From an uncultured Myxococcales bacterium (GTDB lineage: Bacteria > Myxococcota_A > UBA9042 > DTJE01): a stretch of 33,956 bases of DNA. Numbering within the stretch: the first letter of the stretch is position 1; each line of letters starts with the position of its first letter. Of the stretch, positions 7,329 through 30,989 are shown piece by piece. The notes under the pieces were generated by a model. That model did not search any database. It was given only the letters and a program-made list of their open reading frames with translations, and was not told the DNA's origin. The stretch covers positions 1 through 33,956 of the forward strand of contig CAINDP010000210.1 in NCBI GenBank assembly GCA_903847405.1. Direction: 5' to 3'. The position numbers and the translations under genes are program-made.

Positions 7329-7377
7329 CTACGCTCTCCATCTGAACCCGGTGACCTCGGGGAGGCCGATTCCTCCC

Positions 7378-7402
7378 GTACCCCTTGCATGATGGGGGGT
7401 AC
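7378..7402. promoter_or_regulatory. Candidate operator in the CBASS/CapW divergent region
   Basis: GTACCCC (7378-7384) and GGGGTAC (7396-7402) form a perfect 7-bp inverted repeat around 11 bases. A third half-site, GGGGTAC, lies at 7442-7448 just before the regulator's ATG. CapW-type regulators bind such sites in CBASS promoters, so this is the natural candidate operator. GGGGGTAC also occurs at 13272 as part of a likely ribosome site, which weakens the third site. Confidence 0.5.
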
Positions 7403-7451
7403 AGCGGCACGATCCGCGCCGATCCCGATCATTTTTGCACGGGGGTACGAC

Positions 7452-8576: not shown

Positions 8577-8609
8577 TACGATTGGTTCTCGGCGTACCGG
8601 AGAATCAGG

Positions 8610-8984
8610 GTGAAGTTGACAACGGATCACATCGAAGCCCTAGTTGCAGCCGTGCTGGCCGTGAACAACTATCGTCTGGAGAAGGTCTGGGCCCAGTTAC
8701 CCGGACTCCAAGCCGCAGGGCTGACGGATCCAGAATGGGTGGCAGCGGCGGACCTGGGCGAAGTCGTAGTCCGGCTGACCGCTTCGGGCCATGACCGCGG
8801 GATGCTGGCTGGACTGATCGCCGACCGGCTGCAGACGATGATGCAGGCCGTGGTTGCCGGTACGCTCGACCCCCTGCCGGACGCCCTCAAGCGCGGGGAC
8901 CGTGACGCTGCCGTGGGAATCCTCTGCACGGCAAAGGGAATCGGCCCCAAGGTCGCTGACAATGCCCTGATGCTGATGAAGTAG
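8610..8984 (+). CDS. Truncated HhH-GPD-like protein (helix-hairpin-helix)
   Basis: This 124-residue protein starts at the GTG at 8610, with GGAG about eight bases before it. The helical order and the end, KGIGPKVADNALML, resemble the first domain of endonuclease III-type DNA glycosylases, whose hairpin reads LPGVGRKTA. The lysine at the catalytic position is kept. The protein stops four residues after the hairpin, so the catalytic Asp and the iron-sulphur part of true glycosylases are missing. It follows the regulator by 33 bp and is probably on the same message, ahead of the restriction enzyme. It could be a DNA-binding accessory or an eroded enzyme. Confidence 0.6.
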   Translation: MKLTTDHIEALVAAVLAVNNYRLEKVWAQLPGLQAAGLTDPEWVAAADLGEVVVRLTASGHDRGMLAGLIADRLQTMMQAVVAGTLDPLPDALKRGDRDAAVGILCTAKGIGPKVADNALMLMK

Positions 8985-9036
8985 CGCAACGAACCTAAGT
9001 CACCGACATTGGCCTTCCGCCGGGCTCATCGCGAAC

Positions 9037-9065
9037 TTGTCGTTCCGGACCCGCCGGCCTATTCT
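9037..9065 (+). promoter_or_regulatory. Candidate promoter of the type IIG enzyme
   Basis: TTGTCG (9037-9042) and TATTCT (9060-9065) are separated by 17 bp and lie 30 bp before the ATG at 9095. Each element matches the sigma-70 consensus at four of six positions. Found by eye. Confidence 0.45.
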
Positions 9066-9094
9066 CGCCAGACTGATCCTCTGGCAGGGTGTTC

Positions 9095-12919: not shown

Positions 12920-13210
12920 TTGCGTTGCTTGGCGCGGAAGACCCCAGCCCCGCCGAGGATGCGCCAAACGCGCAGGACAACCGCGCAGGCCGACTGCCTC
13001 GCGCGCGATTGCGCCGATCATTCGCAGGTGACTGTGGCGGGGCGCCCGAGCGCCACCCTTCCCAGCCAGCCACTGCCGCCAGCAACATCTTCGCCTCGGC
13101 TTCGAGCCCTAATGGGCGCGTTCATCGCGTTCATCGCCCAGTGCCATACCCGGTATCATGACCTTCCTCGGCGAGCCTGATTTCATCAACATGCCCTGCC
13201 TCAAATCCTA
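12920..13210. other. Non-coding gap after the type IIG gene
   Basis: I see no supported gene between 12920 and 13280. A hairpin with 6-bp arms, GTGGCG (13034-13039) and CGCCAC (13051-13056), could end the upstream message but has no T-run. The direct repeat GCGTTCATC occurs twice at about 13119-13136. The downstream promoter begins at 13211. Confidence 0.4.
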
Positions 13211-13239
13211 TTGACGCAGTTCGCTCGCCTGGATAGCAT
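13211..13239 (+). promoter_or_regulatory. Candidate sigma-70-type promoter for the 13281 gene
   Basis: TTGACG (13211-13216) and TAGCAT (13234-13239) are separated by exactly 17 bp, 42 bp before the ATG. They match consensus at five and four positions of six. This is one of the best promoter candidates in the window. Confidence 0.6.
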
Positions 13240-13280
13240 CCTTCAACTGGTTCACAAATCTCTTTATCCGGGGGGTACAG

Positions 13281-14276
13281 ATGCAGCGTTTCTGCACGCT
13301 CGTTCTTTTCCTATCCGCATTCTGCTTGGCGAGCAACGCCACGCACGCACAGGGCGTGCCGACGCCACAGCAGACGGTACGGATGGCCGTCGCGCCGGCC
13401 CACAAGGGACCGCGGGTCAACGAGTTCACCGTTGAGGAACAGGTCGGCGGTGTCACGACGACGCACAACTATCGGCTCTATGTACTCCTGATCTACAATG
13501 ATCAAGAATCGTTGGAACTGGCCCAAGACTGCGACCCGACCTGGATTGAGAACAACACCGCGAGTTCCGTGGAAGGAGCATGGGCCTCTCAGGCGCCCGT
13601 CCCCTTGCTTCGGACCAAGAGTTATCTCGTCGTCTGTGCCTTCGAGAAGAACGGCACGGGGAATTGGGTCAAGAAGTCACTCAAGCAGATTGGGGTCACG
13701 TCAATACGAATGGTCACCAAGAACTCCGAGGTAGTGAACAACACCTCGGTCGATGCGAGTTTCGCCAAGTGGGTTGCCGCGGCCTCCGTATTGCCGATGA
13801 GCCTCCCAGCCCGGGACCTGCTGGAAAGGGACGAGGGGCGCTGGGCTCGCAACGCTCGCATGGCCATCGAGTTCCAGATCGAGAAAAGCACGCCTATCCC
13901 GGCCTGGATGGAGTTGCGGAAGATCGGCTACTTCCACGGAAGCCTGGAACTCGCGAACACCTACGGTTTCGCTTTCGGGGACAAGGGGAACGCCATCGCG
14001 ATGCCCCTGGTCGTGGCCCTCGGCGGCGACTGGCCGGTCATCCGTAATTCGGATTTCTACCTGGGTGTCCACGCCCTTCTCTCGCCGACGTTCAAGTTCG
14101 CTGAAGGAAAAATCTCGCAGGTCATCTCCGCAGCGGTTGGTGCGCGCTTCGACATCGGGGGATACGCCGGTATCGGCGCCGGCTATCTGATCGATTTCAC
14201 CGGCGACACGAAAGGCAACGCCCTGATCTTCCTTTCGATCGGTAGCGAAATCATGAAGGTTCTGGCGACGCAGTAG
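13281..14276 (+). CDS. Exported protein of unknown function
   Basis: This 331-residue protein has a signal peptide: a hydrophobic core in residues 4-18 and a likely cut after THA near residue 23. The ATG at 13281 is preceded by GGGGGT five to ten bases upstream. Residues 60-160 look mixed alpha/beta and contain three scattered cysteines. The C-terminal ~130 residues alternate Gly and hydrophobic residues (FHGSLELANTYGFAFG, GARFDIGGYAGIGAGYL), as in outer-membrane beta-barrel strands. I do not recognise the family. It sits inside the defence island but has no feature that links it to defence. Confidence 0.75.
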   Translation: MQRFCTLVLFLSAFCLASNATHAQGVPTPQQTVRMAVAPAHKGPRVNEFTVEEQVGGVTTTHNYRLYVLLIYNDQESLELAQDCDPTWIENNTASSVEGAWASQAPVPLLRTKSYLVVCAFEKNGTGNWVKKSLKQIGVTSIRMVTKNSEVVNNTSVDASFAKWVAAASVLPMSLPARDLLERDEGRWARNARMAIEFQIEKSTPIPAWMELRKIGYFHGSLELANTYGFAFGDKGNAIAMPLVVALGGDWPVIRNSDFYLGVHALLSPTFKFAEGKISQVISAAVGARFDIGGYAGIGAGYLIDFTGDTKGNALIFLSIGSEIMKVLATQ

Positions 14277-14387
14277 CAGGCCCTCCACTCTCGGACACGC
14301 CCGCCAATTCGGGAGCCTGCCCCTGGATTCACCATGTCGCAACCATCTGCGACTATCGCCAGCACCTGCCGAACCGGAGGCCCGCCG

Positions 14388-15272
14388 ATGTCCACCCCCG
14401 CGGATCCCATCCCGAGCGAAGTTCTCCCCGGGTTCCGTCAACTGGGCGACGATTGCCCCGTCAGCAATGCCTTCGAAATCTTCCAGGCCATCGGGACGGA
14501 ACCCCGCACCCTTGAGAGCGCCGTGTTGGCCGCGGTGGAGACTGGTGTCCCACGGTACCCGGTCACCGGGGTCACGGCGGCCTGTCAGGACAGGACGGGC
14601 CTGCCCGGCGGGCGGTACATCGTGGGCCCGGACCACGCGGCCCCCTGGATCCTGGACGTGATCGCCATCGGGGACCCCAGCCGGCTGGTGGCATTCATGC
14701 CGCTCCGCGAGCCCGGCCTTGGGGTGCAGGCGAAGTTCGTGGAGGCATCCGTCCTCCCGGAAGGCGTCGAGGCGTGGACGACGATCGAAGTCAACGACGT
14801 CGAATGGACCTTCTACGACACGCGGTTCTGCCTGTGCCGTGCGACGTACCAGCCCGGCGTGACCGCCCCGTGGCGACTTTCCGCGATCGCCGTACGGGTC
14901 GGCCCGGGCGGGGCCGACGACACCCGCGAGGAGGTCCTCCCCGCCAGTCGCGTCGATCCACTGGGCGACACCGTCGACATGACCGAGCTGTCCTACTTCT
15001 TCCCGTCCATGAATGGCCCGGGGGACGAGGCCCAGATCCGCGGCCGGATCCGTGCCGTGCGCAACGTGCGGTTCGGGGACGTGGACGCCTGGGAGATCGA
15101 TGTCGTCGTCCCCGCGGACACGAATGCCACCGAGTGGCCTGTCCTGCCGGTGCTGGTCGGTCGACCGGCATGGGCTGGCCTTCATGCGCCGATTGTCGGG
15201 GGCTTCCTGGAAGGCTTCGCCTGGGTGCAAGGCTACCGGGACGACGTTCCGTTCGCGACCGCGGTGGGGTGA
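14388..15272 (+). CDS. Hypothetical protein, probably cytoplasmic
   Basis: The ATG at 14388 follows GGAGG by seven bases and gives 294 residues. An in-frame ATG at 14334 lacks a ribosome site. No signal peptide or membrane span is visible. The middle contains many short beta-strand-like stretches (WTTIEVNDVEWTFYDTRF, RLSAIAVRVG), and residues 180-290 include MTELSYFFP and AWEIDVVVP. I cannot assign a family or function. It converges on the ATPase/TOPRIM pair with a 61-bp gap. Confidence 0.65.
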   Translation: MSTPADPIPSEVLPGFRQLGDDCPVSNAFEIFQAIGTEPRTLESAVLAAVETGVPRYPVTGVTAACQDRTGLPGGRYIVGPDHAAPWILDVIAIGDPSRLVAFMPLREPGLGVQAKFVEASVLPEGVEAWTTIEVNDVEWTFYDTRFCLCRATYQPGVTAPWRLSAIAVRVGPGGADDTREEVLPASRVDPLGDTVDMTELSYFFPSMNGPGDEAQIRGRIRAVRNVRFGDVDAWEIDVVVPADTNATEWPVLPVLVGRPAWAGLHAPIVGGFLEGFAWVQGYRDDVPFATAVG

Positions 15273-15333
15273 AACGCTCGCGGATGCGGGGCGACCCTGG
15301 GTCAACCCCAGTGCAGGCGGGACGCAAACGCGC

Positions 15334-15918
15334 TCATGGCAGCATGTGCGGACCAGCGGGAACTGCCCCAAGGGCTCGGGCGACGATCCGCACCAACCGG
15401 TCGAAGGACGGCAGTGCAGCCCGGACCAGGTCACGACGTTCTCGCGGCCCCCTTGCGGCGCGATTCAACGCAATGTCGCGTACGTTCAGGCCGGGCTTTT
15501 CGGCCAAGGGCTGCAGGCCCTCCACCCAGCGAATCGCGTCGATCAGGCTTTCCAGGTTCGATTCCAGGAGCACCAACCGGTCGGCCAGGATGACCCCGGC
15601 GGGCGCCACTTTCGCGTCGAAGGCAGTGCGGATCGCACTCTTGCATGAGTTGCCGGGCAGGTTGAAAAGGCCTCGTACTTTGTCCTCGTCCAACACGGCG
15701 ACCAGCCGAAACGCCGTGGCGGAATAGCCGGCATTTTCGCATTCCTTCACGACGTTCCCATTCCCCTTGCAGGGCTTCGAGTCAATCGACTCCCGGACCA
15801 AACGCAGGTCCGTCGCGGCCTCGTCGGCGACGCAGGCGCACAGGAAGGCGTGGGGGCCGTATCCCCTTGGCGGCTGGCCTTGTGCAAGACGATCCTCGAA
15901 CAGAACCCGAATCTTCAT
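15334..15918 (-). CDS. Possible TOPRIM-like partner of the OLD-type ATPase
   Basis: This 194-residue protein begins with a beta strand ending in an acid (IRVLFEDR, Glu8) and later has AVLDEDK with Asp77 and Asp79. An early Glu and a later DxD are the metal-binding marks of the TOPRIM fold, which supplies the nuclease in OLD, GajA and AriB-type defence proteins. The Gly that normally follows the Glu is missing, so this is tentative. Its ATG overlaps the end of the ATPase gene by 4 bp, so the two are translationally coupled, and the ATPase has no TOPRIM domain of its own. Together they could be a split OLD-like system. The partner does not look like the HNH protein of Septu. Confidence 0.65.
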   Translation of the reverse strand: MKIRVLFEDRLAQGQPPRGYGPHAFLCACVADEAATDLRLVRESIDSKPCKGNGNVVKECENAGYSATAFRLVAVLDEDKVRGLFNLPGNSCKSAIRTAFDAKVAPAGVILADRLVLLESNLESLIDAIRWVEGLQPLAEKPGLNVRDIALNRAARGPRERRDLVRAALPSFDRLVRIVARALGAVPAGPHMLP

Positions 15919-17108
15919 CGCTCGTCCTCCGCCGGGGTCTCGGGACGAATCACCAGCGCCTCCTGACCGGCGCTGCGCAGATCACCGTACCCCCTGTACC
16001 CGTCCAGCCAACGTGCCAGAGCGTCAGGGTCTGGTCGGGCAAGACGCGTGTGGCGGCCCTTGGCCAGTTCGCAGACGACGACCGAACTGGCTGGCTGGGT
16101 CAGGTAGTCCAGGAATCGATCCGAATGTGTCGCCACCAGCACCGGTCGGGTCGTCGCGATGGATTCAAACAGTCCGACGGCCCTGGCCAGGAGAGCCGGG
16201 TGCAGATGAAGGTCCGGCTCATCGAATGCCAGCAACGAACCCGTGCCGGGCAGCCGAAGAAGGACCACCAATCCCAGCCACACGACCATGCCGTCCGAAA
16301 GTTCGCTGCCCTGGATGAGGCGATCCATTCCCCGGTACTTGATCGCGATCGACACGTACCCGCCGTTCGGCGCCACCGGCGTGGTCACCGTCTCCAGGTC
16401 CTCCCCGAGTCCCAGGCGGATGTACTCCAGCGTTTCCTGCCAATGCGTCTCGCCGAAGTTGCTCCGCAAGGCGAACAGGGTGCTGGCCAGGTTTGCGGCG
16501 CGCCTTTCCAGAACGGTGGTAGGCATCAGCATCGACGCTTCACGCACTGGCGAGCGAGTTTGCGAACCCTGGGCGATCCAGGAAGGCGTGACGTCAAAAG
16601 GCACGTGGACTTCGATGGCCCGGAGTGCCTCCCGAACGATGGACACCCGTTCCGGCGCCGCGCCTCCCAGAAAGGAGATCGCCGGCCGGTCCGGGCTCGG
16701 GGCATTGTGTGGCCCCCCACCAGCAACGTCCAGCCTGGTTCCGACCCGCACGAACACGGGATCGGGGCCGCCGCCGCCCGAATAGGCAATCAGTCGCTCC
16801 TGGCCCACTCCGCCGGGGGTCAGCACGATGGAGTAGTTCAGCGAGTCCGCCCCGTTCCTCAACGTCACTGCCAGGTCCAGCGACTTGGGGCCCGGTTGAA
16901 TCAGGGACGTGCCCGAGTGGATCGCGTTGAAGTCGTACCAGAAATTCTCCCCGGAAAGGCGCCGCAGGATCTCCAGCGCTTCGATGATCGAACTCTTCCC
17001 GACTCCGTTCTCGCCGATGAGGACCGTCAGCGGGCCGAGTTTCAGCCTGACGTCGGCCAGGCAACGCAGGCCCTTGATTCGAACCTCGGCGAGTCGGAAT
17101 CCTTCCAT
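15915..17108 (-). CDS. OLD/AAA15-21-type ATPase
   Basis: This 397-residue ATPase has the order of OLD-like and RecF-like proteins. Walker A is LIGENGVGKSS near residues 30-40, an ABC-like signature region is GSELSDGMVV, and Walker B is LLAFDEPDLHLHP. A downstream ATHSDRFL histidine motif follows. A C-terminal nuclease domain is absent, so the gene ends about where OLD proteins would continue into TOPRIM. Related ATPases are sensors in defence pairs such as PARIS (AriA) and Septu (PtuA). The ATG at 17108 has GGAGG six bases upstream. The stop overlaps the next gene's start by 4 bp. A possible -10 element TAAGAT lies about 45 bp upstream on the reverse strand. Confidence 0.85.
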   Translation of the reverse strand: MEGFRLAEVRIKGLRCLADVRLKLGPLTVLIGENGVGKSSIIEALEILRRLSGENFWYDFNAIHSGTSLIQPGPKSLDLAVTLRNGADSLNYSIVLTPGGVGQERLIAYSGGGGPDPVFVRVGTRLDVAGGGPHNAPSPDRPAISFLGGAAPERVSIVREALRAIEVHVPFDVTPSWIAQGSQTRSPVREASMLMPTTVLERRAANLASTLFALRSNFGETHWQETLEYIRLGLGEDLETVTTPVAPNGGYVSIAIKYRGMDRLIQGSELSDGMVVWLGLVVLLRLPGTGSLLAFDEPDLHLHPALLARAVGLFESIATTRPVLVATHSDRFLDYLTQPASSVVVCELAKGRHTRLARPDPDALARWLDGYRGYGDLRSAGQEALVIRPETPAEDER

Positions 17109-17169
17109 CGGGCACCTCCGAGCCAGCGAACCGGTCGCGGGGCGTATCTTACCTTGTTATCGGGATGAG

Positions 17170-17198
17170 TTGACACCGTGGACCATCGGCGCGATGAA
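17170..17198 (+). promoter_or_regulatory. Candidate promoter of the DUF262/HNH gene
   Basis: TTGACA (17170-17175) is a perfect -35 element. At 17 bp comes GATGAA (17193-17198), a poor -10 element. It lies in the 141-bp gap between the two divergent defence genes. Confidence 0.4.
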
Positions 17199-17249
17199 TG
17201 CCCGCGTTCGGTAAACCGCCGAAGAGGACCCACGGGAGGCCGTTGAATC

Positions 17250-19157
17250 ATGGCAGGATCCGCGTTCCAGACGAATCCCATCGACCTCGATGCACTGCTG
17301 GACGATTGCGAAAGCGGCGTTCTGCAACTGCCGGATTTCCAGCGCAGTTGGGTCTGGGACGAAGACCGCATCAAGAGCCTGCTGGCCTCGATTTCCAGGG
17401 CCTTTCCCATCGGGGCGTTGATGTCGCTCAGCACGGGTGGTCCCGTGGATTTCAAGCCTCGCCCGGTTGAAGGCTCACCGAGTCGTGCAAAGGAAGCCAC
17501 GCCTCAATCCCTGCTGCTGGACGGCCAGCAACGCATGACTTCGCTGTACCAGGCCACCATTCGAGGCAAGGTCGTCGAGACGGTCACCCCGAAGAAGAAG
17601 AAGGTGAAGCGCTGGTTCTACATCGACATCCGCAAGACGCTCGACCCTTCGGTAGACCGTGAAGAGGCGATCGTCGGCGTCCCCGAGGACCGGGTCATTC
17701 GAACCGATTTCGGCCGTGAGACTCACCTGGACCTTTCGTCACCTGAACTGGAGTACGCGGCCCTGATGTACCCGGTGTCCCAGGTCTTTGACTGGGACAA
17801 GTGGCAGGACGGCTTCGACCAGCACTGGCGCGGTGACCAGAACGAAAAGGTCCGCGACGAATTCCGGGCCTTCAAGCGCCAGGTTCTGGAAAACTTCAAG
17901 TACTACCGCGTACCGGTCATCACGCTGGACCGATCGACCTCCAAGGAGGCGGTGTGCGTCGTTTTCGAAAAGGTGAACACCGGAGGCAAGGCGCTGGACG
18001 CCTTTGAACTGGTGACCGCGATGTACGCTGCCTCGGGGCACGAATTGCGGAAGGACTGGTACGGGGACGACGGGACGAAGGGACGGCATCGGCGGTTCAA
18101 GGAAACCCTTCGGCCGGCCGATTCCGACGCCGGCATCATCGCGGCAGTTTCGAATACGGATTTCCTGCAGGCGATTTCCCTGTTCCATACGCGAGATCGC
18201 AGGCGGGCGGCGGAAGCCGCAGGAAAGCAGGGCAAGGAACTGCCCGCTGTTTCAGGGAATCGGCAAGCCCTGTTGAACCTGCCCCTCGATGCGTACAAGC
18301 GGTACGAAGCCCAGGTGGAAAACGGCTTCGTGCGCGCGGCCAAGTTCCTGCACATGCTGCACATCTACCGGATATTCGATCTGCCGTACCAGTCACAGAT
18401 CGTTCCGCTGGCGGCCATTCTTTCCGAGATCGGCGACGCGTGGGAGCACGAAGCGAACCGCGCCAAACTGGTGAGTTGGTACTGGAATGGAGTCTTCGGC
18501 GAACTCTATGGTTCCGCCGTGGAAACGCGCATCGCGCGCGATTTCATGGAGGTGCCGGTCTGGCTGGCGGGCGGTCCCGAACCATCCACGGTTCGCGAAA
18601 CCATCTTCCGCGCCGACCGGTTGAAGACCATGAGGATGCGCCTGTCCGCAGCCTACAAGGGGATCAATGCGCTCCTGATGAAGGAAGGCGCCAAGGACTT
18701 CCGTTCAGGGCAGCGGTTCGACCACACCGTGTTCTTCGGCGAGAACGTGGACATCCACCACATCTTCCCCCAGGACTGGTGCAAAAAGCACGGCATCAAG
18801 CCAGGCGTCTACGATTCCATCATCAACAAGACGCCGTTGTCGTACAGGACGAACCGGATCATCGGAGGTGTTGCGCCGTCCGAGTACCTGGCGAAACTTG
18901 AACGAGGCGATGGTGCCACGCCCCCGATCGACGCAGCAAGACTCGATATCTACCTCACGTCCCACCTGACGGATTCGTTGCTGGTGCGTGCCGACAACTT
19001 CGGCGCCTTCATGGAGGACCGACAGAATCGGTTGTTGGCCCTGATCGAGCAGGCAACCGGCAAGCCCATCTACCGGGGCGACGCCAAGGAGGAAGGCGAG
19101 GATGTCGATGGCGACGAGGATACGGTCGAGGCCGAACTGACGATTGCATCGACGTGA
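17250..19157 (+). CDS. DUF262/HNH protein, GmrSD-like type IV restriction candidate
   Basis: This 635-residue protein starts with a DUF262 (ParB/Srx-like) domain. It has LQLPDFQRSWVWDEDRI near residues 25-41, LLLDGQQRMTSL near 88-99 (Asp91) and VFEKVNTGGKALDAFEL near 240. The C-terminal half has an HNH-type motif, VDIHHIFPQDW, near residue 500, followed by LSYRTNRIIGG and APSEYL. In GmrSD and related enzymes DUF262 binds and hydrolyses nucleotides and the HNH part cuts DNA with modified bases. GGGAGG lies 11 bases before the ATG at 17250. The acidic tail (residues 610-630) is probably disordered. It diverges from the ATPase pair, so the three may or may not act together. Confidence 0.88.
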   Translation: MAGSAFQTNPIDLDALLDDCESGVLQLPDFQRSWVWDEDRIKSLLASISRAFPIGALMSLSTGGPVDFKPRPVEGSPSRAKEATPQSLLLDGQQRMTSLYQATIRGKVVETVTPKKKKVKRWFYIDIRKTLDPSVDREEAIVGVPEDRVIRTDFGRETHLDLSSPELEYAALMYPVSQVFDWDKWQDGFDQHWRGDQNEKVRDEFRAFKRQVLENFKYYRVPVITLDRSTSKEAVCVVFEKVNTGGKALDAFELVTAMYAASGHELRKDWYGDDGTKGRHRRFKETLRPADSDAGIIAAVSNTDFLQAISLFHTRDRRRAAEAAGKQGKELPAVSGNRQALLNLPLDAYKRYEAQVENGFVRAAKFLHMLHIYRIFDLPYQSQIVPLAAILSEIGDAWEHEANRAKLVSWYWNGVFGELYGSAVETRIARDFMEVPVWLAGGPEPSTVRETIFRADRLKTMRMRLSAAYKGINALLMKEGAKDFRSGQRFDHTVFFGENVDIHHIFPQDWCKKHGIKPGVYDSIINKTPLSYRTNRIIGGVAPSEYLAKLERGDGATPPIDAARLDIYLTSHLTDSLLVRADNFGAFMEDRQNRLLALIEQATGKPIYRGDAKEEGEDVDGDEDTVEAELTIAST

Positions 19158-21321: not shown

Positions 21322-23193
21322 TCACCCCTCCCCGTACACCCGCTGCACCGCCGCCTCGACGAAGTCCGCCATCCGCCGCTTGACGTCCTTGCGACGTGCG
21401 GCGCCTTCCCGGGCGACCTGGCCCAGCGTCTGCAGCAGGACGTCGATGTCCGCCGGTTCGGTGCCCAGCCCGAAACTGACGCGGGCCATGCCGGGCAGGT
21501 CCAGTTTCGGAAAGACGGTCACGATCGCCCGCTGGAACTGCTGCGCCCACGGGGGAATCCCCAGTTGGTGCTTGATCAGCATGTGCGCGCAGTGGCAGCC
21601 CCAGCGCGTGCCGATGCCGGCCCGCTCGGCCAGTTCGCCGGCCACCTTGTAGGAAATCGAGCCCTTCAGGTCGAAGGCGATCACCCCGCCCCGTCGGCCA
21701 AAACGCGGGTTGGCGGCGTCGGCGATGCCGTGCACCTTCAGGCCCGGGATCCGGGCCAGGCCGGCCAGGGCAAGAGCGGTCAGGGCCTGTTCCTCCGCCT
21801 CGACCACGTCCATGCCAATCCGCTGCAGCAGGAGCAGCGCCTTGGCCAGCCCCGCCAGGCCGCCCACGTTTTCCCGGCCCGACGCGCGGATCCGCGCCAG
21901 ACGGTCCGGGTCGAAGGCCAGCAGGCTCTTCCGTATCACCAGAGCGCCGCTGCCGAACGGCGCATAGGCCTTGTGGGCGGAAAAGGCCAGGTAGTCCACG
22001 CCCCATGCGTCCATGTCCACCCGGCGGTGGGCCACCAACTGGGCCGCGTCCACCAGCACCCGGGCGCCGTGGCGGTGCGCGATCCGGCAGATTGCCGAAA
22101 GGTCGTTGAACGTGCCCAGCACGTTCGAGGCGCCGCTGACGGCCACCAGGCGGATCCGCTGGTTGCCGTGCAGTGCGTCCTGGTTGTAGGCGGCCAGTTC
22201 GGCCTCCAGGCGGGCCGGATCGATGAAGCCCTCTGCGTCCACGTCCAGGAGGACGTGCGCGAACCCGGTCCGATCGCGCCACGGCAGTTCGTTGGAGTTG
22301 TGCTCCAGCAGCGTGTTCAGCACGACGGGCGCCATTCCGTCGGTGGCCTGCAGGCCGATGTCTTCCGCCGCCAGGTGGACGGCTTCGGTCGTGTTCGCGG
22401 TGAACAGCACCTCGTAGTCCGACGCAGGCGCATTCAGGAAGCCGGCCACCACCGCGGCGGCCTCTTCCACCAGCGCAGGACGGGCCCGAGGGTCCAGTTG
22501 CCAGGTGCGCCAAACGGCATCCCAGATGGGGGCGAAGGTGGGCGTGCTGGCCCCGTTGTCCAGGTTCACCAGCGGGCTGGTGCCTTCCGCCGTGGGCACG
22601 CGCAGGTCCAGGCCGATGCGGCTGGCCTTCAGCCGGGCCAGCAGTTCGCGGCCGCGCAGTTCCTGGAATTCACCGTCCTGAAGGATGTCGGCGGGGGTCG
22701 CGTCCACCCGGTCCTCGCGGAAGCAGTCGTTTCCGTGGCGCCGGGCCAGTTGCAGGGCGCGGGCAAACGCGATGACGTTCACGATCGCAGGGGTGCCGGC
22801 CTCGAAGCGGCCCGGCGCCCTGGCCCAGACCACCCAGCCCGGGCCCACCAGGCGGGCCGTGCCGCCGCCGGCCTGGAACGTGGTCAGGCGCGCCAGTGCC
22901 GGGCGCCGGAGGACCAGGGCCCGCACGCCCAGGGGCAGGTCCAGGTCGGCGCTGGACAGGCACTGGCAATCCCCCGGTTCCAACTGGGCCAGCAGGCCAT
23001 CGGCGGCCGCCGGGGCACAGAAGATCACCTCGTGGCTGCCTTCCAGACCCAGGTGCGCCAGGACCACGGCGCGGGCATGCTCGTACAGCCGGGTGGAAAC
23101 CATCGAGTGGTGGCCGCTGCCGCGATGCACGTTGCTGTAGGTTTCCAGGGCGGCGTGGACCGAGCGCTGGAGTTCCTGGAAGGCGACGGACAT
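21322..23193 (-). CDS. Class V PLP aminotransferase / desulfurase fused to a shortened copy of its own fold
   Basis: This protein has 623 residues, against about 400-480 for the family. Residues 205-615 are a full fold-type I enzyme. The PLP lysine is Lys408 in FSAHKAYAPFGSGAL, with upstream LVDAAQ. A Cys motif, RWGCHCAH, lies where cysteine desulfurases of the SufS group have RxGHHCA. Residues 1-200 repeat family motifs: YSNVHRGSGHHS, TRLYEHARAVVL, then FEAGTPAIVNVIAFARAL. They lack the middle of the fold with the lysine, so the N-terminal copy cannot bind PLP by itself. GAGGTG lies six bases before the ATG. It could be a cysteine desulfurase-like enzyme or an aminotransferase; the substrate is unknown. 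Confidence 0.85.
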   Translation of the reverse strand: MSVAFQELQRSVHAALETYSNVHRGSGHHSMVSTRLYEHARAVVLAHLGLEGSHEVIFCAPAAADGLLAQLEPGDCQCLSSADLDLPLGVRALVLRRPALARLTTFQAGGGTARLVGPGWVVWARAPGRFEAGTPAIVNVIAFARALQLARRHGNDCFREDRVDATPADILQDGEFQELRGRELLARLKASRIGLDLRVPTAEGTSPLVNLDNGASTPTFAPIWDAVWRTWQLDPRARPALVEEAAAVVAGFLNAPASDYEVLFTANTTEAVHLAAEDIGLQATDGMAPVVLNTLLEHNSNELPWRDRTGFAHVLLDVDAEGFIDPARLEAELAAYNQDALHGNQRIRLVAVSGASNVLGTFNDLSAICRIAHRHGARVLVDAAQLVAHRRVDMDAWGVDYLAFSAHKAYAPFGSGALVIRKSLLAFDPDRLARIRASGRENVGGLAGLAKALLLLQRIGMDVVEAEEQALTALALAGLARIPGLKVHGIADAANPRFGRRGGVIAFDLKGSISYKVAGELAERAGIGTRWGCHCAHMLIKHQLGIPPWAQQFQRAIVTVFPKLDLPGMARVSFGLGTEPADIDVLLQTLGQVAREGAARRKDVKRRMADFVEAAVQRVYGEG

Positions 23194-23307: not shown

Positions 23308-23367
23308 GATCCGCGGAACGGATTCGTCCTTTGGAACGGCTGGCATACTCACGAAGGAAGGTGCGGA

Positions 23368-24168
23368 ATGTCCATTCTCCGGCGGGCCCGATGGGCCGTC
23401 CTCGTGACCCTGGGAGTGGTCGGTTGTTCGACCGGCACGGACCCGATCGTCCACGTCCTCGGCGAGGCGGAGTTCGGCGCCAACCCCGCCCTGAAGGGGA
23501 CCTTCGACGACGTCCTGGTCACGTGGCTGGAGGCGGCCGGGCAGCCGCAACGGGCCGGGGACACGGGGCCTGCGGGCCAGGACCGCCTGCCGATCGTCAT
23601 CGACCGGGATGAAACGCGGATCTTCGCCATGGACGATGCCGAGGGCCACCCCAACACCCTGCAACTGCTGGACGCCGCCGGGACGGTCCTGGCCGAAACG
23701 GGCGTGGGGCTGCCGCCGGCGATGGTGCGCCTTGGGGCAGGGACATACAGTCTGCTGATCCGCCGGGCGGACAGCGTGCCGGCCGACGACAACCTGGTGA
23801 CCTTCGTCATGCCGTTCCAGCGGGTCGTCGCACCGGCGGACCAGGCCTCGCGGGCCGTGACGGCGTCGACCGATGTACCGGCTGCCGGTGACGACACCTG
23901 CCCCGTCAGTTACGGCCTGGATCCGCAAATCAGCGACGCGGTCACCCAGGCGAACGTCAAGGTCCTGGGCGACTCGCCTGGAATGGCGATGGGCAATCTG
24001 TTCCAGGCCACGGCCCAGGCACTCTCCAACGCCGCCCACAACGCCACGAACGCCCAGCAGCAAGCCTACGTCACCGCGCAGGCATCGACGACCATGGGCA
24101 TCACCACCCTCTACTCCATCGACACGGCCTCGACGGGGGTCGCGACCGCCAGGATTCTGGGCCAGTAG
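23368..24168 (+). CDS. Lipoprotein with C-terminal RebB (R-body) domain
   Basis: This is a 266-residue protein. Residues 1-20 are a lipoprotein signal ending VVGC (Cys20). Residues 25-180 are a beta-rich exported domain I do not recognise (VRLGAGTYSLLIRRA). Residues about 185-264 match the RebB / killing-trait family closely: ISDAVTQANVKVLGDSPGMA, NLFQATAQALSNAAHNATNA, QQQAYVTAQAS and YSIDTASTGVA. RebB proteins are small cytoplasmic proteins that polymerise into R-bodies, coiled ribbons that unroll and rupture membranes, and are normally encoded as separate ~100-residue genes in clusters. Here the domain is attached to an exported lipoprotein, and no other reb gene is nearby. AAGGAAGG precedes the ATG. 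Confidence 0.8.
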   Translation: MSILRRARWAVLVTLGVVGCSTGTDPIVHVLGEAEFGANPALKGTFDDVLVTWLEAAGQPQRAGDTGPAGQDRLPIVIDRDETRIFAMDDAEGHPNTLQLLDAAGTVLAETGVGLPPAMVRLGAGTYSLLIRRADSVPADDNLVTFVMPFQRVVAPADQASRAVTASTDVPAAGDDTCPVSYGLDPQISDAVTQANVKVLGDSPGMAMGNLFQATAQALSNAAHNATNAQQQAYVTAQASTTMGITTLYSIDTASTGVATARILGQ

Positions 24169-24174: not shown

Positions 24175-24306
24175 GGCACGGTGCCAGCGCCTCGCCAGCA
24201 GTTCCCCGTTCACGAAGGGCCCGTAGACCTCCGCCGTGTCGAAGGACGTCACGCCGCGTTCCACGGCCGCCCGCAGCAAGGCGATCATTCGACCGGCGAC
24301 GTCACG
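24175..24306 (-). pseudogene. Aldo-keto reductase remnant
   Basis: The reverse strand encodes a short stretch (MIALLRAAVERG, VTSFDTAEVYGPF) that is the N-terminal part of aldo-keto reductases, including the catalytic Asp and Tyr of FDTAEVYG. After NGELL the frame is wrong. Restoring one G near 24195 gives GEALAP, which is the normal continuation. No start codon context and no further reductase sequence follow, because the flanks are the RebB-lipoprotein and the FG-GAP genes. This is a degraded fragment of about 45 codons. Confidence 0.8.
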
Positions 24307-24344
24307 GGGTGCTATCCTGCCGCCGACCCCCGGAGGAGGATACC

Positions 24345-25682
24345 GTGCGAAGCGCCCGATGGTTCATCGTCCTGCTGGCCCTGGCTGCCGCATGCTCGGG
24401 GACGGGACCGGCCGACACCCCGGGTGCGGACGTACCTGCGGACGCCATCGCGGATACCGTCGCGGACGTCCCCCCCGCCCTCCCGAAGTTCCGCCGCCAC
24501 GTCGTCGATGCCCAGGCGACCGGCGCGGCCTATGCCGAGGTGGCGGACCTGGACGGGGACGGCGTGCCGGAACTGGTGGTGTCGCTGTTCGGGAAGCCCG
24601 ACGACGCGAACTTCTACCCGGACGGCCAGGTCGTCGTATACAAGCGGGGCCAGGACCTGGACCACTGGACCCGGTCCGTCATCCTCTCGGGCGATCTGGG
24701 CGTGAAGTACCCGAACCGCCCCACCGTCGCGGACGTGAACGGCGACGGTCGCCCGGACGTCATCGTCGCGGCGGGCTTCCTGCTGTGCACGCTGTTCAGC
24801 GAGGACTACGCCTGCGGCAGCCTCCAATGGATGGAGCAGACCGAAACCGGCTGGACGCGCCACCTGCTGGTCGAGGGTACCGTGGACTTCTACCACCGCG
24901 GGCTGCTGCTGGATGTGGACGGGGACCACCGGGACGACCTGGTGACGGTGGCCGAGCACATGGTCGGCATGGCCGGCGACAACCAGGGCGCGGTCACGCG
25001 GTGGTTCAAGGGCGTCGATGGCGCCGACCGGTTCGATCCGGCGCCGCGGGACCTGGCGGCCGGCATGGGCAGCCTGTTCCAGGCGGTGGACGTCGATGGC
25101 GACGGCGACACGGACCTCTGCGCGGCCGAGTTTTTCGTGGCGGGGGAGTCGGTGGCCTGGCTGGAGCAGAAGGACGGCCAGTGGATCCACCACGTCATCG
25201 ACGCCGACAGCGGCCCGTCCATCCAGTTCGCCCTGGTACCGAACCTGTTCGGGGACGGCGTGGCGCGCGGCGTGGGTTCGAACCACGTGAACACGCAGGA
25301 CGACGCGACGGCCCCCGAATCGGCCATCCGCGTCTATGACCGCCCGGTGAATCCCGCGGACCCCTGGACGAAGCGGGTCGTTTCGCAGGGGATCCAGTCC
25401 GTCAAGTCGCCGGTGGGCGCGCCGCAGCAGGCGCCGGGCGTGTTCGGGTGGGGCGACATCGACGGCGACGGCCGGATTGACCTGGCCGTATCGGGCGACG
25501 GCGACCCTCGTGTCCTCTGGCTGCAGCAGGTCGCGCCCGGGCAATTTGAAACGCAGGTGCTGGAAGCCAGCCTGCCCGAGGCCAGCGGCATGCAGGTCGT
25601 GGATCTGGACGGCAACGGGACCCCCGAGATCGTCGTGACCGGCTACACCGACAACGTCGTGTACGTCTACGAGCGCGAGTAG
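24345..25682 (+). CDS. FG-GAP/VCBS-repeat lipoprotein
   Basis: This 445-residue protein starts at the GTG at 24345, five bases after GGAGGAGG. The signal peptide ends LALAAACSG, a good lipobox, and is followed by an Asp/Ala/Pro linker. At least six FG-GAP-type calcium-binding loops follow: VADLDGDGVPELVV, VADVNGDGRPDVIV, LLDVDGDHRDDLVT, AVDVDGDGDTDLCA, WGDIDGDGRIDLAV and VVDLDGNGTPEIVV. These build a seven-bladed integrin-like propeller on the cell surface, where such proteins bind ligands or partners. The ligand is unknown. A TATCCT element (24313-24318) inside the old reductase region may serve as its -10 element. Confidence 0.88.
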   Translation: MRSARWFIVLLALAAACSGTGPADTPGADVPADAIADTVADVPPALPKFRRHVVDAQATGAAYAEVADLDGDGVPELVVSLFGKPDDANFYPDGQVVVYKRGQDLDHWTRSVILSGDLGVKYPNRPTVADVNGDGRPDVIVAAGFLLCTLFSEDYACGSLQWMEQTETGWTRHLLVEGTVDFYHRGLLLDVDGDHRDDLVTVAEHMVGMAGDNQGAVTRWFKGVDGADRFDPAPRDLAAGMGSLFQAVDVDGDGDTDLCAAEFFVAGESVAWLEQKDGQWIHHVIDADSGPSIQFALVPNLFGDGVARGVGSNHVNTQDDATAPESAIRVYDRPVNPADPWTKRVVSQGIQSVKSPVGAPQQAPGVFGWGDIDGDGRIDLAVSGDGDPRVLWLQQVAPGQFETQVLEASLPEASGMQVVDLDGNGTPEIVVTGYTDNVVYVYERE

Positions 25683-26407: not shown

Positions 26408-27648
26408 GTTGCCTCCACCCTGGTCGGGATCCGGCATTCGATCCGGGTCCCCCGACTGTTCGTGCCCGGGCCCATCGCGAAGGTTCCGCCCACCCGTTCC
26501 GCCCGCCACGCCATCGTCCGCAGGCCCAGTCCCAGGCCCGACCCGCCGTCGGGCGGCAGGCCGCACCCGTCGTCCTCGACCCGCAACGTCATGCCGCCCG
26601 GATCCCGGACCAGGGTGACCTCGATCCGCCCCGCTGCCGAATGCCGCATGGCGTTCGCCATCGCCTCCTGGGCGATCCGGTAGGCCTGGAGCGCCTCGGC
26701 CGGATCAGGGGACGGGCCTTCCCCCTGGGACCGGAACGTCACCTCGGCCTCGCAGACGCCCGCCGCCCGCCGGACCAGATCGTCCAGGGCACCCACCAGG
26801 TCGCGGCCCGCCAGCGCACCCGGGCTCAGTTCCCGTGAAAGGTCATGGATCTCGCGGATGGCATCCCCGACCGACTCGACAATCCCCTCCATCACCTCGG
26901 GTTCCAGGCCCTTCCCGGTCTGCAGACGGGTCTGCGCGCGCCGGGCCCGGATCAGGATCCCCGTCAGGTCCTGGCAGACCCCGTCGTGCAGGTCGTGGCC
27001 GATGCGGCGCCGTTCCCGCTCCCCCACCTCGATCAGTTCGCCCTCCAGCCGGACCCGGGCCGCGGCCTCGTCCTGCAGGCGCTCGACGGCGACCTGCTCG
27101 CGGCGGAGGGTGCCGACCAGATGCTGGCAGAACCACGCCAGCAGCAGGACGATGGGCAGGCCGATCCCGACCGCAGCGACCGCATGAAACAGCCACTCCC
27201 CATCGAACCAGGGCGGCGCGGTCGTCGGAAGGATCCCGACCTCCGTTGCCCACAGGGCCGCCACCAGGAACCCGAAGTCGATCAAGGCCAGGACCAGCCC
27301 GGTCCGCACGCCCACCAGAAACAGCATCGGCAACGGAAAGACCAGCATGACCACCCGGAACTCGTGGAAGATCCCGGCGCGGTACAGCATGGCGCCGGCC
27401 CACACCCAGGACGACAGGACCAGCAGGACGGCGCGCAGGACGGTAGGTGCCCGCCGGAGCGCCGCGGCCGTCACCACGAGGGCCCACCCCGCCAGGGACA
27501 CGGCCTTGAGGACGGGCGGGATGGAAACGACCAGGATCGTCGGCAGGACCAGGACCCCCTGCACCACCGCGATCGCCAGTGTGTAGGCGTTCATCGCCTT
27601 CCGGCGCCACGGCCCGATCGGGTCCTTGTCCGAGGTCCAGTCGCCCAT
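26404..27648 (-). CDS. NarL-type sensor histidine kinase with membrane N-terminus
   Basis: This 414-residue kinase has five or six membrane segments between residues 20 and 178 and no large periplasmic domain, so it may sense something in or at the membrane. The HisKA_3 box RERRRIGHDLHDGVCQDLTG places the phosphorylated histidine at His221. The ATPase part has EAMANAMRHS (N box) and DDGCGLPP. It is coupled to the response regulator by a 4-bp overlap. The ATG at 27648 has AGGGGG four bases upstream. A second ATG at 27594 would remove 18 residues that lie partly in the duplicated 27625-27793 sequence, so the true start is open. Confidence 0.88.
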   Translation of the reverse strand: MGDWTSDKDPIGPWRRKAMNAYTLAIAVVQGVLVLPTILVVSIPPVLKAVSLAGWALVVTAAALRRAPTVLRAVLLVLSSWVWAGAMLYRAGIFHEFRVVMLVFPLPMLFLVGVRTGLVLALIDFGFLVAALWATEVGILPTTAPPWFDGEWLFHAVAAVGIGLPIVLLLAWFCQHLVGTLRREQVAVERLQDEAAARVRLEGELIEVGERERRRIGHDLHDGVCQDLTGILIRARRAQTRLQTGKGLEPEVMEGIVESVGDAIREIHDLSRELSPGALAGRDLVGALDDLVRRAAGVCEAEVTFRSQGEGPSPDPAEALQAYRIAQEAMANAMRHSAAGRIEVTLVRDPGGMTLRVEDDGCGLPPDGGSGLGLGLRTMAWRAERVGGTFAMGPGTNSRGTRIECRIPTRVEAT

Positions 27649-27793
27649 GCGTCCCCCTGTCCCGCCGCCATGCTGTCACGGCCGAAGGTCCGTGCAGAAG
27701 CCGTGGTTGTGCCGACACGATTGTACGCAAACACGCCTACATCGACGACCGCAGCCCCGCGGCTACACGGCTTTACGCGACCGGGATAGCCTG
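27625..27793 (+). repeat. Direct repeat, copy A: upstream region of the 27861 gene
   Basis: This 169-bp stretch aligns without gaps to 31026-31194 at a constant offset of 3401 bp. By eye about three-quarters of positions are identical. The best blocks are GTCCCGCCGCCATGC at 27659, GGTCCGTGCAGAAG at 27687, TGTACGCA at 27722 and CTACACGG at 27763. The left end runs into the kinase gene. It contains the candidate promoter. Confidence 0.85.
27764..27792 (+). promoter_or_regulatory. Candidate promoter of the pseudo-alkylsulfatase gene
   Basis: TACACG (27764-27769) and TAGCCT (27787-27792) are separated by 17 bp, within the best-kept part of the duplicated upstream region and at the same relative positions as in the second copy. 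The -35 element is poor, so an activator may be needed. Confidence 0.4.
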
Positions 27794-27860
27794 CCGTCGT
27801 CGCCAAGAGCCGCCTGCAGGGCGACCCGCTGGACGGTGGGCACGTACACGAGGAGACACC

Positions 27861-30800
27861 ATGAACGCAATCCGGATCCGGAGGTTCGCCACGGTCGCGG
27901 CACTCTTGCTGGCCGCCGCGGCCTTCCCCGGCGCGGCGTCGGCCGACGTCCTCGACACGCTGAGCCCGCACTGCATCGCGTCGTTCTGCGAGGGCTACGT
28001 CGGGGACCCCGGGGCGGTCGCCTGCGCGGACCTGGCCCAGGCGGACTGCCTGACGCGACAGAATTGCTGGTGGCGCGACACGACGGCGCAGAACGCGCTG
28101 GCCGAGTCGGCGGCGACGGACTTCGGCGGCCAGTTGCTGCACCCGTATTCGGGTTCCTACTCGGGCAAGGCCGTCGATGTCTGGGTCTGGAACGGGCTGG
28201 AGGGGACGAACGTCATCCTCGTCGTGTCGGGGACACAGTACTTCCAGATTGGCAACGGCGTTTCGGACCTGGTGCGCGACGAGGCCCTGGCGGCTTTCCA
28301 GGCCGGGATCCCCGGCTTCGAAACGCTGACGGCATACGGCTACCTCTACAACACCGCCGAACCGGGGGTCAACGGCTCGACCTGGACCTCCGACACCGCC
28401 ATTCCCGTGCACGTCGCGCAGAGTTGGGTGACCGAAGTGCAACTCCGAAACCTGGCCTTGAACGCCCACGCGGCACGCTCGGCCGCTGTGCTCGGCGCAG
28501 GCCTGTCCTGGGGGCCCGACGGGTTCCTCGGGGACGGGAGCCTGTACGGCTGGGACCTCAGCGCGCCCACGTCGCCGCAGAAGCCGAACTCGCCGGTCAG
28601 CGAGACGTCGACGACCACGATCGCCATGGACGGTTTCCCGATCTTCCTGATCCCGGGCGGCCTGCCGTCCATCGTCACCGTGTACCTCCCGGCCCAGAAG
28701 GTTCTGATCCCGGGCTGGCCGTTCGGCACGCACTTCCCCGACATCGCGCCGCTGGATCGCGCGCCGCTGGACCCGTACAACGTGGTCCGAACCCTGAACA
28801 CCTGGCTCTCCCTCAATCCGAACGCCGTGGTCCCGCAGTACGGACCACCTGTCCTCGGGAACGCCAGTTCCATGGCGATGCTGACGGCCCAGCGGGACGC
28901 GGTCAGCTACGTCCAGAACGAAACCTTGCGCCGCATGAACCTGGGCGAGGACGTGGACACGGTGGCCGCGACGCTGGCGCTGCCGTCGAACCTGGCGGAC
29001 AGCCCCTGGAACCAGCAGGTCGCGACGACCGTGCCCGGCGTGGTGCGCGGGATCTACGCGCTGCGCCTGGGCTGGTACGGCGGCCTGCCGGCGGACCTGG
29101 CGCTGAAGGGACTGACGCCCGCCGAGCAGGCGGCCCGGCTGGCCGGTGTCGGGGGCACGGCGGCCCTGCTGACGGCGGCGAAGTCGGCCCTGGACGAGAA
29201 GACGGACACGGGCGCCCGATGGGCGGCATACGCGGCCCACGCGGTGATGGTGGCGGACCCGAACGGGGACGCCCTGGCCGCGAAGTGCATCTACTGGAAT
29301 GCCCTGCGACGCCTGGCCTTCGCGACGCCCAGCGCCCGCGAGCGCAACCTGTTCCTGTCCGAGATCGGGGCGCTGGGCGACCTGGCCGGGACCTGCGGCG
29401 CGGACGACGACGCCGACGGCACGACGAACTGGCTCGACTGCTCGCCCCGGGACGCGGGCGTGAACCCGGGCGCCACCGAGGTCTGCGACGGCAAGGACAA
29501 TGACTGCAACGGGCAGGTGGACGACGGGATCGCCCCGGTGGGCACGGTGTGCGGCAGCGGCGCCTGCGAGGCCACCGGCATCCGCAGTTGCATCGGCGGC
29601 CAGATGGTGGACGACTGCCGGACGGGCACGCCGATGGCCGAGGCCTGCAACGACATCGACGACGATTGCAACGGGATTGCAGACGACGGGATTGCCCCGG
29701 TGGCGACGACGTGCGGCCAGGGCGCCTGCGAGGCCGCCGGCACCAGCGGGTGCATCGGTGGCGCGTGGGTCACGAACTGCGTGCCCGGTACGCCGTTGAT
29801 CGAGGTCTGCGACGGCATGGACAACGACTGCAACGGCGCGGTGGACGACGACATTCCGACGGTGCTGTCGCAGTGCGGCGTCGGCGCCTGCACCGCGTCC
29901 GGCACGTGGACCTGCGTCGGGGGCACGCTGGTGGACTCGTGCGTCCCGACGGCGCCGTCCGTCGAACTGTGCGACGGCATGGACAACGACTGCAACAGCA
30001 CCGTGGACGACATCGCACCCCTGCCCACGACCTGCGGCGTCGGCGCCTGCGCATCGACTGGCGCGTGGGCTTGCGTCGGCGGGACGCTGGTGGATTCCTG
30101 CACGGCCGGCACCCCCGGCTTCGAGGCCTGCGACGGGATCGACAACGACTGCAGTGGCGTGGCGGATGACGGGATCGCGCCGGTCCCGACGACGTGCGGC
30201 ATCGGGGCCTGCACGGAGACCGGAATCCTGGCGTGCGCGAACGGGACGTGGGCCGAACTCTGCGTGCCCGGCATGCCGGCGGCGGCGGACGCCACCTGCG
30301 ACGGGATCGACGACGACTGCGACGGGCAGACCGACGAGGACTACGTCCCGGCGAGGTGCGGCGTTGGCGCCTGCGCGTCTGCCAGCCGCTGCGTGGCCGG
30401 GGTCCCGGGCGTCTGCCTGCCCGGAAGCCCCGCCGCGGAGGTTCTGGACGGCATCGACAACGACTGCGACGGAATCATCGACGAGGGGACGGCGTGCACG
30501 GCGAACAGCCAGTGCGCGACCGGCTTCTGCGCCGACGGCGTCTGCTGCACGTCGGCCTGCGGCGGCGGGCTCGCCGGGGACTGCCTGGCCTGCAGCGTGG
30601 CAGCCGGCGCGGCTGTCGATGGCACCTGCGGCCCGGCCGCGATGGGGACGGCCTGCCGGGCGTCGGCGGGGGTCTGCGACACGGGCGAGGCGTGCGACGG
30701 GGCCTCGACGGCCTGCCCTACGGACCTCTTCAAGTCTTCCAGCAAGGTCTGCCGGGTTTCGGCGGGCGCGTGCGATCCGGCCGAGACCTGCACCGGAACC

Positions 30801-30989
30801 TCGGCCGCGTGCCCGGCTGACGCCTACAAGCCCGCCGGCACCGTCTGCCGGGCGGCCTCCGGTACCTGCGATCCTGCCGAAACCTGCACCGGCGCGAACG
30901 TCGGGTGCCCGGCCAACCGGTTCGTTCCCAGCGGCACCACCTGTGGCGCCGGAAGGATCTGCCAGAACGGCGCCTGCAAGAAGCGCTGA
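27861..30989 (+). CDS. Secreted alkylsulfatase-like pseudoenzyme with MopE and Cys-rich repeats
   Basis: This 1042-residue exported protein has a signal peptide with a likely cut after ASA near residue 29. Residues 70-330 follow the metallo-beta-lactamase part of SdsA1-type alkylsulfatases. The zinc motif HSHVDH should lie in the strand read here as AYGYLYNTAEPG (about 158-169), and the later ligand His is replaced in PQYGPPVLG (about 325). Residues about 343-525 match the alkylsulfatase dimerisation domain (QRDAVSYVQNETLRRMNLG, IYALRLGWYGGLPADL). Seven MopE-type motifs (CDGxDNDCNGxVDDG) lie between about 540 and 880, then a disintegrin-like Cys-rich tail. GAGGAG lies five bases before the ATG. 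It is probably catalytically dead and used for binding. Confidence 0.8.
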   Translation: MNAIRIRRFATVAALLLAAAAFPGAASADVLDTLSPHCIASFCEGYVGDPGAVACADLAQADCLTRQNCWWRDTTAQNALAESAATDFGGQLLHPYSGSYSGKAVDVWVWNGLEGTNVILVVSGTQYFQIGNGVSDLVRDEALAAFQAGIPGFETLTAYGYLYNTAEPGVNGSTWTSDTAIPVHVAQSWVTEVQLRNLALNAHAARSAAVLGAGLSWGPDGFLGDGSLYGWDLSAPTSPQKPNSPVSETSTTTIAMDGFPIFLIPGGLPSIVTVYLPAQKVLIPGWPFGTHFPDIAPLDRAPLDPYNVVRTLNTWLSLNPNAVVPQYGPPVLGNASSMAMLTAQRDAVSYVQNETLRRMNLGEDVDTVAATLALPSNLADSPWNQQVATTVPGVVRGIYALRLGWYGGLPADLALKGLTPAEQAARLAGVGGTAALLTAAKSALDEKTDTGARWAAYAAHAVMVADPNGDALAAKCIYWNALRRLAFATPSARERNLFLSEIGALGDLAGTCGADDDADGTTNWLDCSPRDAGVNPGATEVCDGKDNDCNGQVDDGIAPVGTVCGSGACEATGIRSCIGGQMVDDCRTGTPMAEACNDIDDDCNGIADDGIAPVATTCGQGACEAAGTSGCIGGAWVTNCVPGTPLIEVCDGMDNDCNGAVDDDIPTVLSQCGVGACTASGTWTCVGGTLVDSCVPTAPSVELCDGMDNDCNSTVDDIAPLPTTCGVGACASTGAWACVGGTLVDSCTAGTPGFEACDGIDNDCSGVADDGIAPVPTTCGIGACTETGILACANGTWAELCVPGMPAAADATCDGIDDDCDGQTDEDYVPARCGVGACASASRCVAGVPGVCLPGSPAAEVLDGIDNDCDGIIDEGTACTANSQCATGFCADGVCCTSACGGGLAGDCLACSVAAGAAVDGTCGPAAMGTACRASAGVCDTGEACDGASTACPTDLFKSSSKVCRVSAGACDPAETCTGTSAACPADAYKPAGTVCRAASGTCDPAETCTGANVGCPANRFVPSGTTCGAGRICQNGACKKR

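What the first reader, a model, noticed from the sequence alone, without database searches (positions are those of the whole stretch)
23368..24168. R-body RebB domain exported as part of a lipoprotein
RebB proteins normally are small cytoplasmic subunits of contractile R-body ribbons. Here a close RebB match forms the C-terminus of a predicted lipoprotein with its own beta domain, and no rebA/C/D genes are adjacent. This suggests an envelope-anchored R-body or a new use of the polymerising domain outside the cytoplasm.
Basis: partly seen in the sequence, partly recalled or inferred. Interest (0 to 1): 0.7.

Follow-up and report, generated by a model that had tools for sequence, protein, structure and literature searches.

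The report
RebB domain on a predicted surface lipoprotein
A bacterium has joined the helix-forming unit of R-bodies (coiled killer ribbons normally built inside cells) to a predicted membrane-anchored export module and has no other R-body gene; together with separately evolved exported relatives in Maricaulis, this suggests that this polymer unit is sometimes used outside the cytoplasm.

Summary
Observation confirmed. The ORF at 23368-24168 (+) encodes 266 aa: lipobox signal (VVG-C20, AAGGAAGG ribosome site), PPC-like beta-sandwich, linker, and a complete RebB domain (aa 188-255, Pfam PF11747, 97.6 bits against a cut-off of 24). It is the only RebB in a 96.7%-complete assembly, so there is no reb cluster and probably no R-body. 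The N-terminal module comes from a family of pentapeptide-repeat lipoproteins in the host's own taxonomic family; the RebB domain groups with Pseudomonadota RebB proteins. The gene looks like a chimera of a host lipoprotein and a horizontally acquired RebB. AlphaFold gives one 80-residue helix; 45 of 55 conserved RebB positions are kept. Among 596 RebB-like ORFs screened no other is a lipoprotein, but single-copy RebB genes with Sec signal peptides occur in Maricaulis parjimensis and syntenically in three related genomes, in a different RebB clade: export arose at least twice. The two Reb surveys I could search do not mention it. Best guess: the helix self-associates at the cell envelope and is not an R-body. 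Lipidation, location and polymerisation are predictions. 'Envelope-anchored R-body' is unlikely; 'new use of the domain outside the cytoplasm' is supported.

The parts
23354..23361 (+). ribosome-binding site AAGGAAGG, 6 bases before the ATG
   Evidence: sequence
23368..24168 (+). whole gene: 266-aa predicted lipoprotein with C-terminal RebB domain
23368..23427 (+). lipoprotein signal peptide ending in C20 (lipobox VVG-C, +2 Ser)
   Evidence: the Cys is invariant in the three proteins aligned
23428..23844 (+). N-terminal beta-sandwich module, PPC / collagen-binding-domain-like; found in this host family at the start of pentapeptide-repeat lipoproteins
23845..23922 (+). low-confidence linker, aa 160-185
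   Evidence: pLDDT low at 150-166, rising through the linker
23929..24132 (+). RebB domain (PF11747), aa 188-255; predicted single helix aa 186-265
24190..24285 (-). 32-aa remnant of an aldo/keto reductase, directly behind the RebB stop: a sign of rearrangement at this edge
   Evidence: (PF00248, E 3.7e-5, 23.4 bits, just under the cut-off of 24)
21322..23193 (-). divergent class-V aminotransferase; the same-genus orthologues (77-81% protein identity) have no RebB beside them
24309..25682 (+). next gene downstream: FG-GAP repeat lipoprotein

Best explanation
The gene is a chimera. A host-type lipoprotein front end (signal peptide, acylated cysteine, PPC-like beta-sandwich) that this bacterial family otherwise puts before pentapeptide repeats has been joined to a RebB domain acquired from a Pseudomonadota-type reb cluster. 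Shown: the architecture, the intact RebB signature, the absence of any other reb gene, the paralogous front ends, and separate exported RebB genes in another phylum. Inferred: the protein is exported by Sec, lipidated and displayed at the outer membrane. Its roughly 12-nm RebB helix then self-associates side by side, using the same polar and hydrophobic faces that are thought to pack Reb subunits in R-bodies, to cluster or cross-link the beta-sandwich heads into a membrane-tethered oligomer or lattice. It is not an R-body and has no piston action.
For: RebB match and motifs: (QISD for QITD, KVLGD, P204, NAAHNAT, QQQ; 45 of 55 conserved positions identical). Helix with pLDDT mostly above 85. 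Lipobox and start. Paralogous front ends. Beta-sandwich. Single RebB in the genome. RebB of Pseudomonadota type by tree. Independent Sec-exported singletons. The proposal that domains 1-3 of Reb proteins mediate subunit assembly is from PMC13430693.
Against: No experiment. One genome only, so purifying selection on the fusion cannot be measured. In two of the exported Maricaulis-type homologues (G651, G704) the middle of the helix is replaced by proline-containing sequence, so exported RebB need not polymerise. Known R-body assembly uses several Reb proteins. The last 81 residues could also be just a rigid stalk.
Confidence: 0.45

Rival explanations
1. Passive structural tail: the captured RebB helix is a rigid spacer or coiled-coil stalk that only sets distance or oligomeric state of the beta-sandwich, without ordered polymerisation.
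For: Predicted as one uninterrupted helix; the central helix is broken in some exported homologues, so packing is not always kept.
Against: 45 of 55 family-conserved positions are kept, including the motifs QISD, KVLGD and QQQ; a plain stalk would be expected to drift.
Confidence: 0.25
2. Evolutionary dead end: an in-frame fusion by horizontal transfer and rearrangement with no selected function yet; the high identity to RebB reflects recency only.
For: No other genome of the class was found with it; same-genus genomes lack it; an aldo/keto reductase remnant lies at its edge and the neighbourhood is rearranged.
Against: Intact frame with good start and signal; 18-30% divergence from every RebB seen shows it is not a very recent copy of any of them, yet it has kept the motifs.
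Confidence: 0.15
3. A true envelope-tethered R-body, co-assembled with Reb subunits that lie in missing parts of the assembly.
For: The RebB domain looks assembly-competent; the assembly is 96.7% complete, not 100%.
Against: No second RebB-family hit at E <= 10; reb genes normally cluster, and here the flanks are unrelated genes.
Confidence: 0.05
4. Assembly or sequencing artefact joining two genes.
For: An assembly in 273 contigs; reads not available.
Against: Open frame through the junction, equal codon-position GC on both sides; the flanking aminotransferase has same-genus orthologues.
Confidence: 0.08

Closest known systems
RebB family R-body structural proteins (Pfam PF11747), group-1 type reb clusters of Pseudomonadota such as Shewanella, Azospirillum, Xanthomonas, Stenotrophomonas
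   Same: Full-length RebB domain, 70-82% identity, conserved motifs, predicted single helix
   Different: Those are standalone proteins of about 80-110 aa without signal peptide, mostly in clusters of 3-10 reb genes; here one domain at the end of a 266-aa predicted lipoprotein with no other reb gene
Sec-exported single-copy RebB of Maricaulis parjimensis (L083:7917-8270) and related genomes G679, G651, G704
   Same: RebB domain behind an export signal, only reb gene of its genome
   Different: Sec-type signal with no lipobox and no extra domain; different RebB clade; shared synteny next to a nadA-like gene; some copies have a broken central helix
Pentapeptide-repeat lipoproteins of the same bacterial family (G000:C184, 968 aa; G079:C16; G176:C380; G158)
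   Same: Lipoprotein-type start and N-terminal beta module (21-29% identity to the window)
   Different: They continue into pentapeptide repeats; here that part is replaced by RebB
PPC / collagen-binding domains of clostridial-type collagenases (PDB 4hpk, 5sv5)
   Same: Beta-sandwich fold, best structural matches (best E 3.3e-4, TM 0.47-0.51)
   Different: No sequence match to the Pfam model; the fold match is moderate

Membership tests
RebB protein family (PF11747) | Score above the curated cut-off over the whole profile | tested here: met
   97.6 bits, cut-off 24, positions 1-68 of 68
RebB protein family (PF11747) | Signature motifs QITD flanked by prolines, KxxxD/E, NA-containing motif and QQQ (PMC13430693) | tested here: met
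   QISD (T to S), P186, P204, KVLGD, NAAHNAT, QQQ; 45 of 55 conserved columns identical
RebB protein family (PF11747) | All-helical fold | tested here: met
   predicted helix 186-265, pLDDT mostly above 85
RebB protein family (PF11747) | Small standalone protein without export signal | tested here: not met
   187 residues precede the domain, with a lipobox signal
R-body-producing reb system | Several Reb proteins in one cluster (3 or more in the 2026 survey; RebA and RebB, or RebP1 and RebP2, experimentally) | tested here: not met
   one RebB-family hit in the assembly at E <= 10
R-body-producing reb system | Group-1 partner gene HP1.1 | tested here: inconclusive
   absent from G000, but also absent from four same-phylum genomes that have reb clusters
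R-body-producing reb system | SDS-insoluble coiled ribbons | not testable with these tools
   needs electron microscopy
Bacterial lipoprotein | Positively charged start, hydrophobic core, lipobox with Cys | tested here: met
   RR, AVLVTLGVV, VVG-C20; shuffles reach this in 0.8%; Cys invariant in the alignment
Bacterial lipoprotein | Lipid attached to the cysteine, outer-membrane location | not testable with these tools
   +2 Ser is compatible with outer-membrane sorting (general knowledge)
PPC domain family | Match to the Pfam PPC profile | tested here: not met
   no Pfam match to the N-terminal 180 aa apart from a chance hit at E 0.22
PPC domain family | Beta-sandwich fold like collagenase PPC / collagen-binding domain | tested here: inconclusive
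   best hits are these domains, TM 0.47-0.51

The most novel reading that the evidence does not exclude
RebB is not only an R-body subunit: in several lineages a lone RebB domain has been moved outside the cytoplasm, by a lipoprotein fusion here and by Sec signal peptides in Maricaulis-type bacteria, and there builds an extracellular or envelope-tethered helical polymer.
Probability: 0.25. Interest if true: 0.8.

Novelty: new variant of a known kind. Interest (0 to 1): 0.6.

Why it matters
R-bodies are described as cytoplasmic ribbons, and what lone reb genes do is an open question (one to nine Reb homologues per genome in the 2013 survey, PMC3583457). A RebB on a lipoprotein, plus syntenic Sec-exported RebB genes in a named species (Maricaulis parjimensis DSM 16078), makes a concrete, testable claim that the polymer-forming helix is used outside the cytoplasm. 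It also offers a single-gene system for studying what RebB does without its partners.

Tried and rejected
Internal start after the lipobox: no ATG/GTG/TTG between the beta module and RebB has a ribosome site. Further reb genes in the genome: none at E <= 10. Partner HP1.1: no hit, but the controls with reb clusters also lacked it, so nothing was learnt. Clean empty site in same-genus genomes: not available, because the neighbourhood is rearranged. Orthologue of the full protein in the family, the class or the species-genome collection: none (needs a conserved 8-residue word, so it finds close relatives only). Viral contigs: no relative with either query. Solved structures by sequence: none. 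Fold search of the whole model: nothing significant in PDB or viral library. Long 'fused' RebB ORFs in other loci (L030, L062, L087 and others) were frames open upstream of an ordinary RebB start, or other long Reb-like proteins, without export signals. The gene beside the exported RebB in Maricaulis-type genomes looks like a pseudouridine synthase (RluA-like, read by eye) and was dropped as a partner. Literature on RebB with signal peptide, lipoprotein or periplasm: no relevant paper in the library searched.

Full report
WHAT IS THERE. The ORF at 23368-24168 (+) starts with ATG behind AAGGAAGG and codes for 266 aa without interruption. Residues 1-20 are a lipoprotein signal (MSILRRARWAVLVTLGVVGC); the rule that it fits is met by 0.8% of shuffles of the same residues. 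Residues 188-255 match RebB (PF11747) over the whole profile with 97.6 bits, cut-off 24. Codon-position GC is coding-like on both sides of the junction (GC3 0.88 and 0.89), and no start codon with a ribosome site lies between the front part and RebB. The window is the entire contig C210 of a 96.7%-complete, 273-contig assembly.

IT IS THE ONLY REB GENE. The genome has one RebB-family match even at E <= 10. Of the genomes sampled in its phylum, 10 of 379 have RebB; none of the listed positives other than the window's genome belongs to its class, of which 52 genomes are held. The other strong cases in the phylum are ordinary groups of 2-10 reb genes. Two genomes of the same genus have the neighbouring aminotransferase (77-81% protein identity) but no RebB.

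THE FRONT PART IS HOST-TYPE. The first 150 aa are related to the start of a 968-aa lipoprotein in the same genome (G000:C184) and to large lipoproteins in G158, G079 and G176. The lipobox cysteine is invariant in the three proteins aligned, and these proteins run into pentapeptide repeats. Folded alone with its relatives, the module is a beta-sandwich (pLDDT 78, pTM 0.73) whose best solved matches are collagenase PPC / collagen-binding domains (best E 3.3e-4, TM 0.47-0.51). Sequence profiles do not recognise it.

THE REBB PART IS OF PSEUDOMONADOTA TYPE AND INTACT. The closest domain is in a Shewanella contig (82% over 79 aa). In a tree of 131 domains it falls in the large, mostly Pseudomonadota clade (99/85), outside the RebB groups of its own phylum (only 86 columns, so placement inside the clade is unresolved). 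Of 55 columns conserved at 60% or more, 45 are identical, including the signature motifs listed in PMC13430693, with QISD for QITD. AlphaFold2 predicts one helix, aa 186-265, mostly above pLDDT 85; the same paper reports helical models of Reb proteins. I conclude that the gene is a chimera of a host lipoprotein front end and a horizontally acquired RebB. An aldo/keto reductase remnant of 32 aa directly behind the stop (marginal, 23.4 bits against a cut-off of 24) and a different gene order in the two same-genus genomes fit a rearranged site.

EXPORTED REBB EXISTS ELSEWHERE. Screening 596 RebB-like ORFs (loci overlap, so not all are distinct) for a hydrophobic signal left, after reading the candidates, two with ATG and ribosome site and a convincing signal: the window gene and a RebB in Maricaulis parjimensis, MLHPLHWTLLGLTSLGLAASAAAQ-DADIVNPQITD. 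That genome has only this RebB. A search of 398 genomes of its order found 27 with RebB. Sec-type signals precede RebB in G592 (Maricaulis parjimensis), G679, G651, G704 and, with a degenerate domain, G777; G694 has a copy with the signal and RebB in different frames. The first four and G694 share synteny beside a gene that I read as nadA. All five exported cases are singletons: 5 of 15 singleton genomes against 0 of 12 multi-copy genomes (Fisher p 0.037; pooled with the other sets, 6 of 20 against 0 of 23, p 0.006). The Maricaulis-type copies are orthologues and the comparison was made after the pattern was seen, so these p-values overstate the case. Between G651 and G704 dN/dS is about 0.42 for the mature part and 0.24 for its second half, so the protein seems to be under constraint. 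On the tree the exported Maricaulis-type domains sit in another well-supported clade than the window's, and the exported label needs 3 changes: export arose at least twice. G651 and G704 have prolines in the middle of the helix, which argues that exported RebB does not always polymerise.

HOW IT MOST LIKELY WORKS. Inferred: Sec export, lipidation at C20, display at the outer membrane, and side-by-side association of the roughly 12-nm RebB helix, which clusters the beta-sandwich heads. An R-body is unlikely, since known ones use at least two Reb subunits (C. taeniospiralis RebA and RebB are the main components, PMC8322103; RebA, B and C suffice in E. coli, PMC3583457) and only one is here.

WHAT IS KNOWN. 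The two Reb surveys that I could search in full text (PMC3583457, PMC13430693) contain no mention of signal peptides or fusions, and the second none of lipoproteins; paper searches gave nothing relevant. Subscription papers were not searchable, so novelty is provisional.

LIMITS. One genome, no reads, no experiment. Signal calls rest on pattern rules, not on a trained predictor.

Noticed in passing
L083:7917-8270 (Maricaulis parjimensis) and L192, L193, L194: Single-copy RebB genes with Sec signal peptides, syntenic across Maricaulis-type genomes; this became part of the argument.
   Followed up: yes
3842-6647: CBASS-type pair on the minus strand: DncV-like oligonucleotide cyclase with AGS_C sensor and a SAVED endonuclease effector.
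   Followed up: partly
6921-19157: Rest of a defence island: WYL regulator, type IIG / DrmMI-like restriction-methylase, OLD/HEC-01-like AAA ATPase, GmrSD-type nuclease, with unassigned ORFs at 13281-15272 between them.
   Followed up: partly
21-2366: 781-aa ORF with no Pfam or PADLOC match at the edge of the defence island.
   Followed up: no
24190-24285 (-): 32-aa aldo/keto reductase remnant between the RebB gene and the FG-GAP lipoprotein.
   Followed up: partly
27579-30989: Large ORF combining an alkyl-sulfatase dimerisation match with six MopE-type metal-binding motifs.
   Followed up: no
L138, L140, L141 (G460, G463, G461): RebB proteins with two or three tandem copies of the 'AVNxQITD' start before one RebB body.
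   Followed up: no
L155, L157, L163, L165-L167 (Caulobacter type): Single-copy RebB genes, each the only one in its genome, without signal peptide but with a long Ala/Glu-rich C-terminal tail: another lone-RebB class.
   Followed up: no
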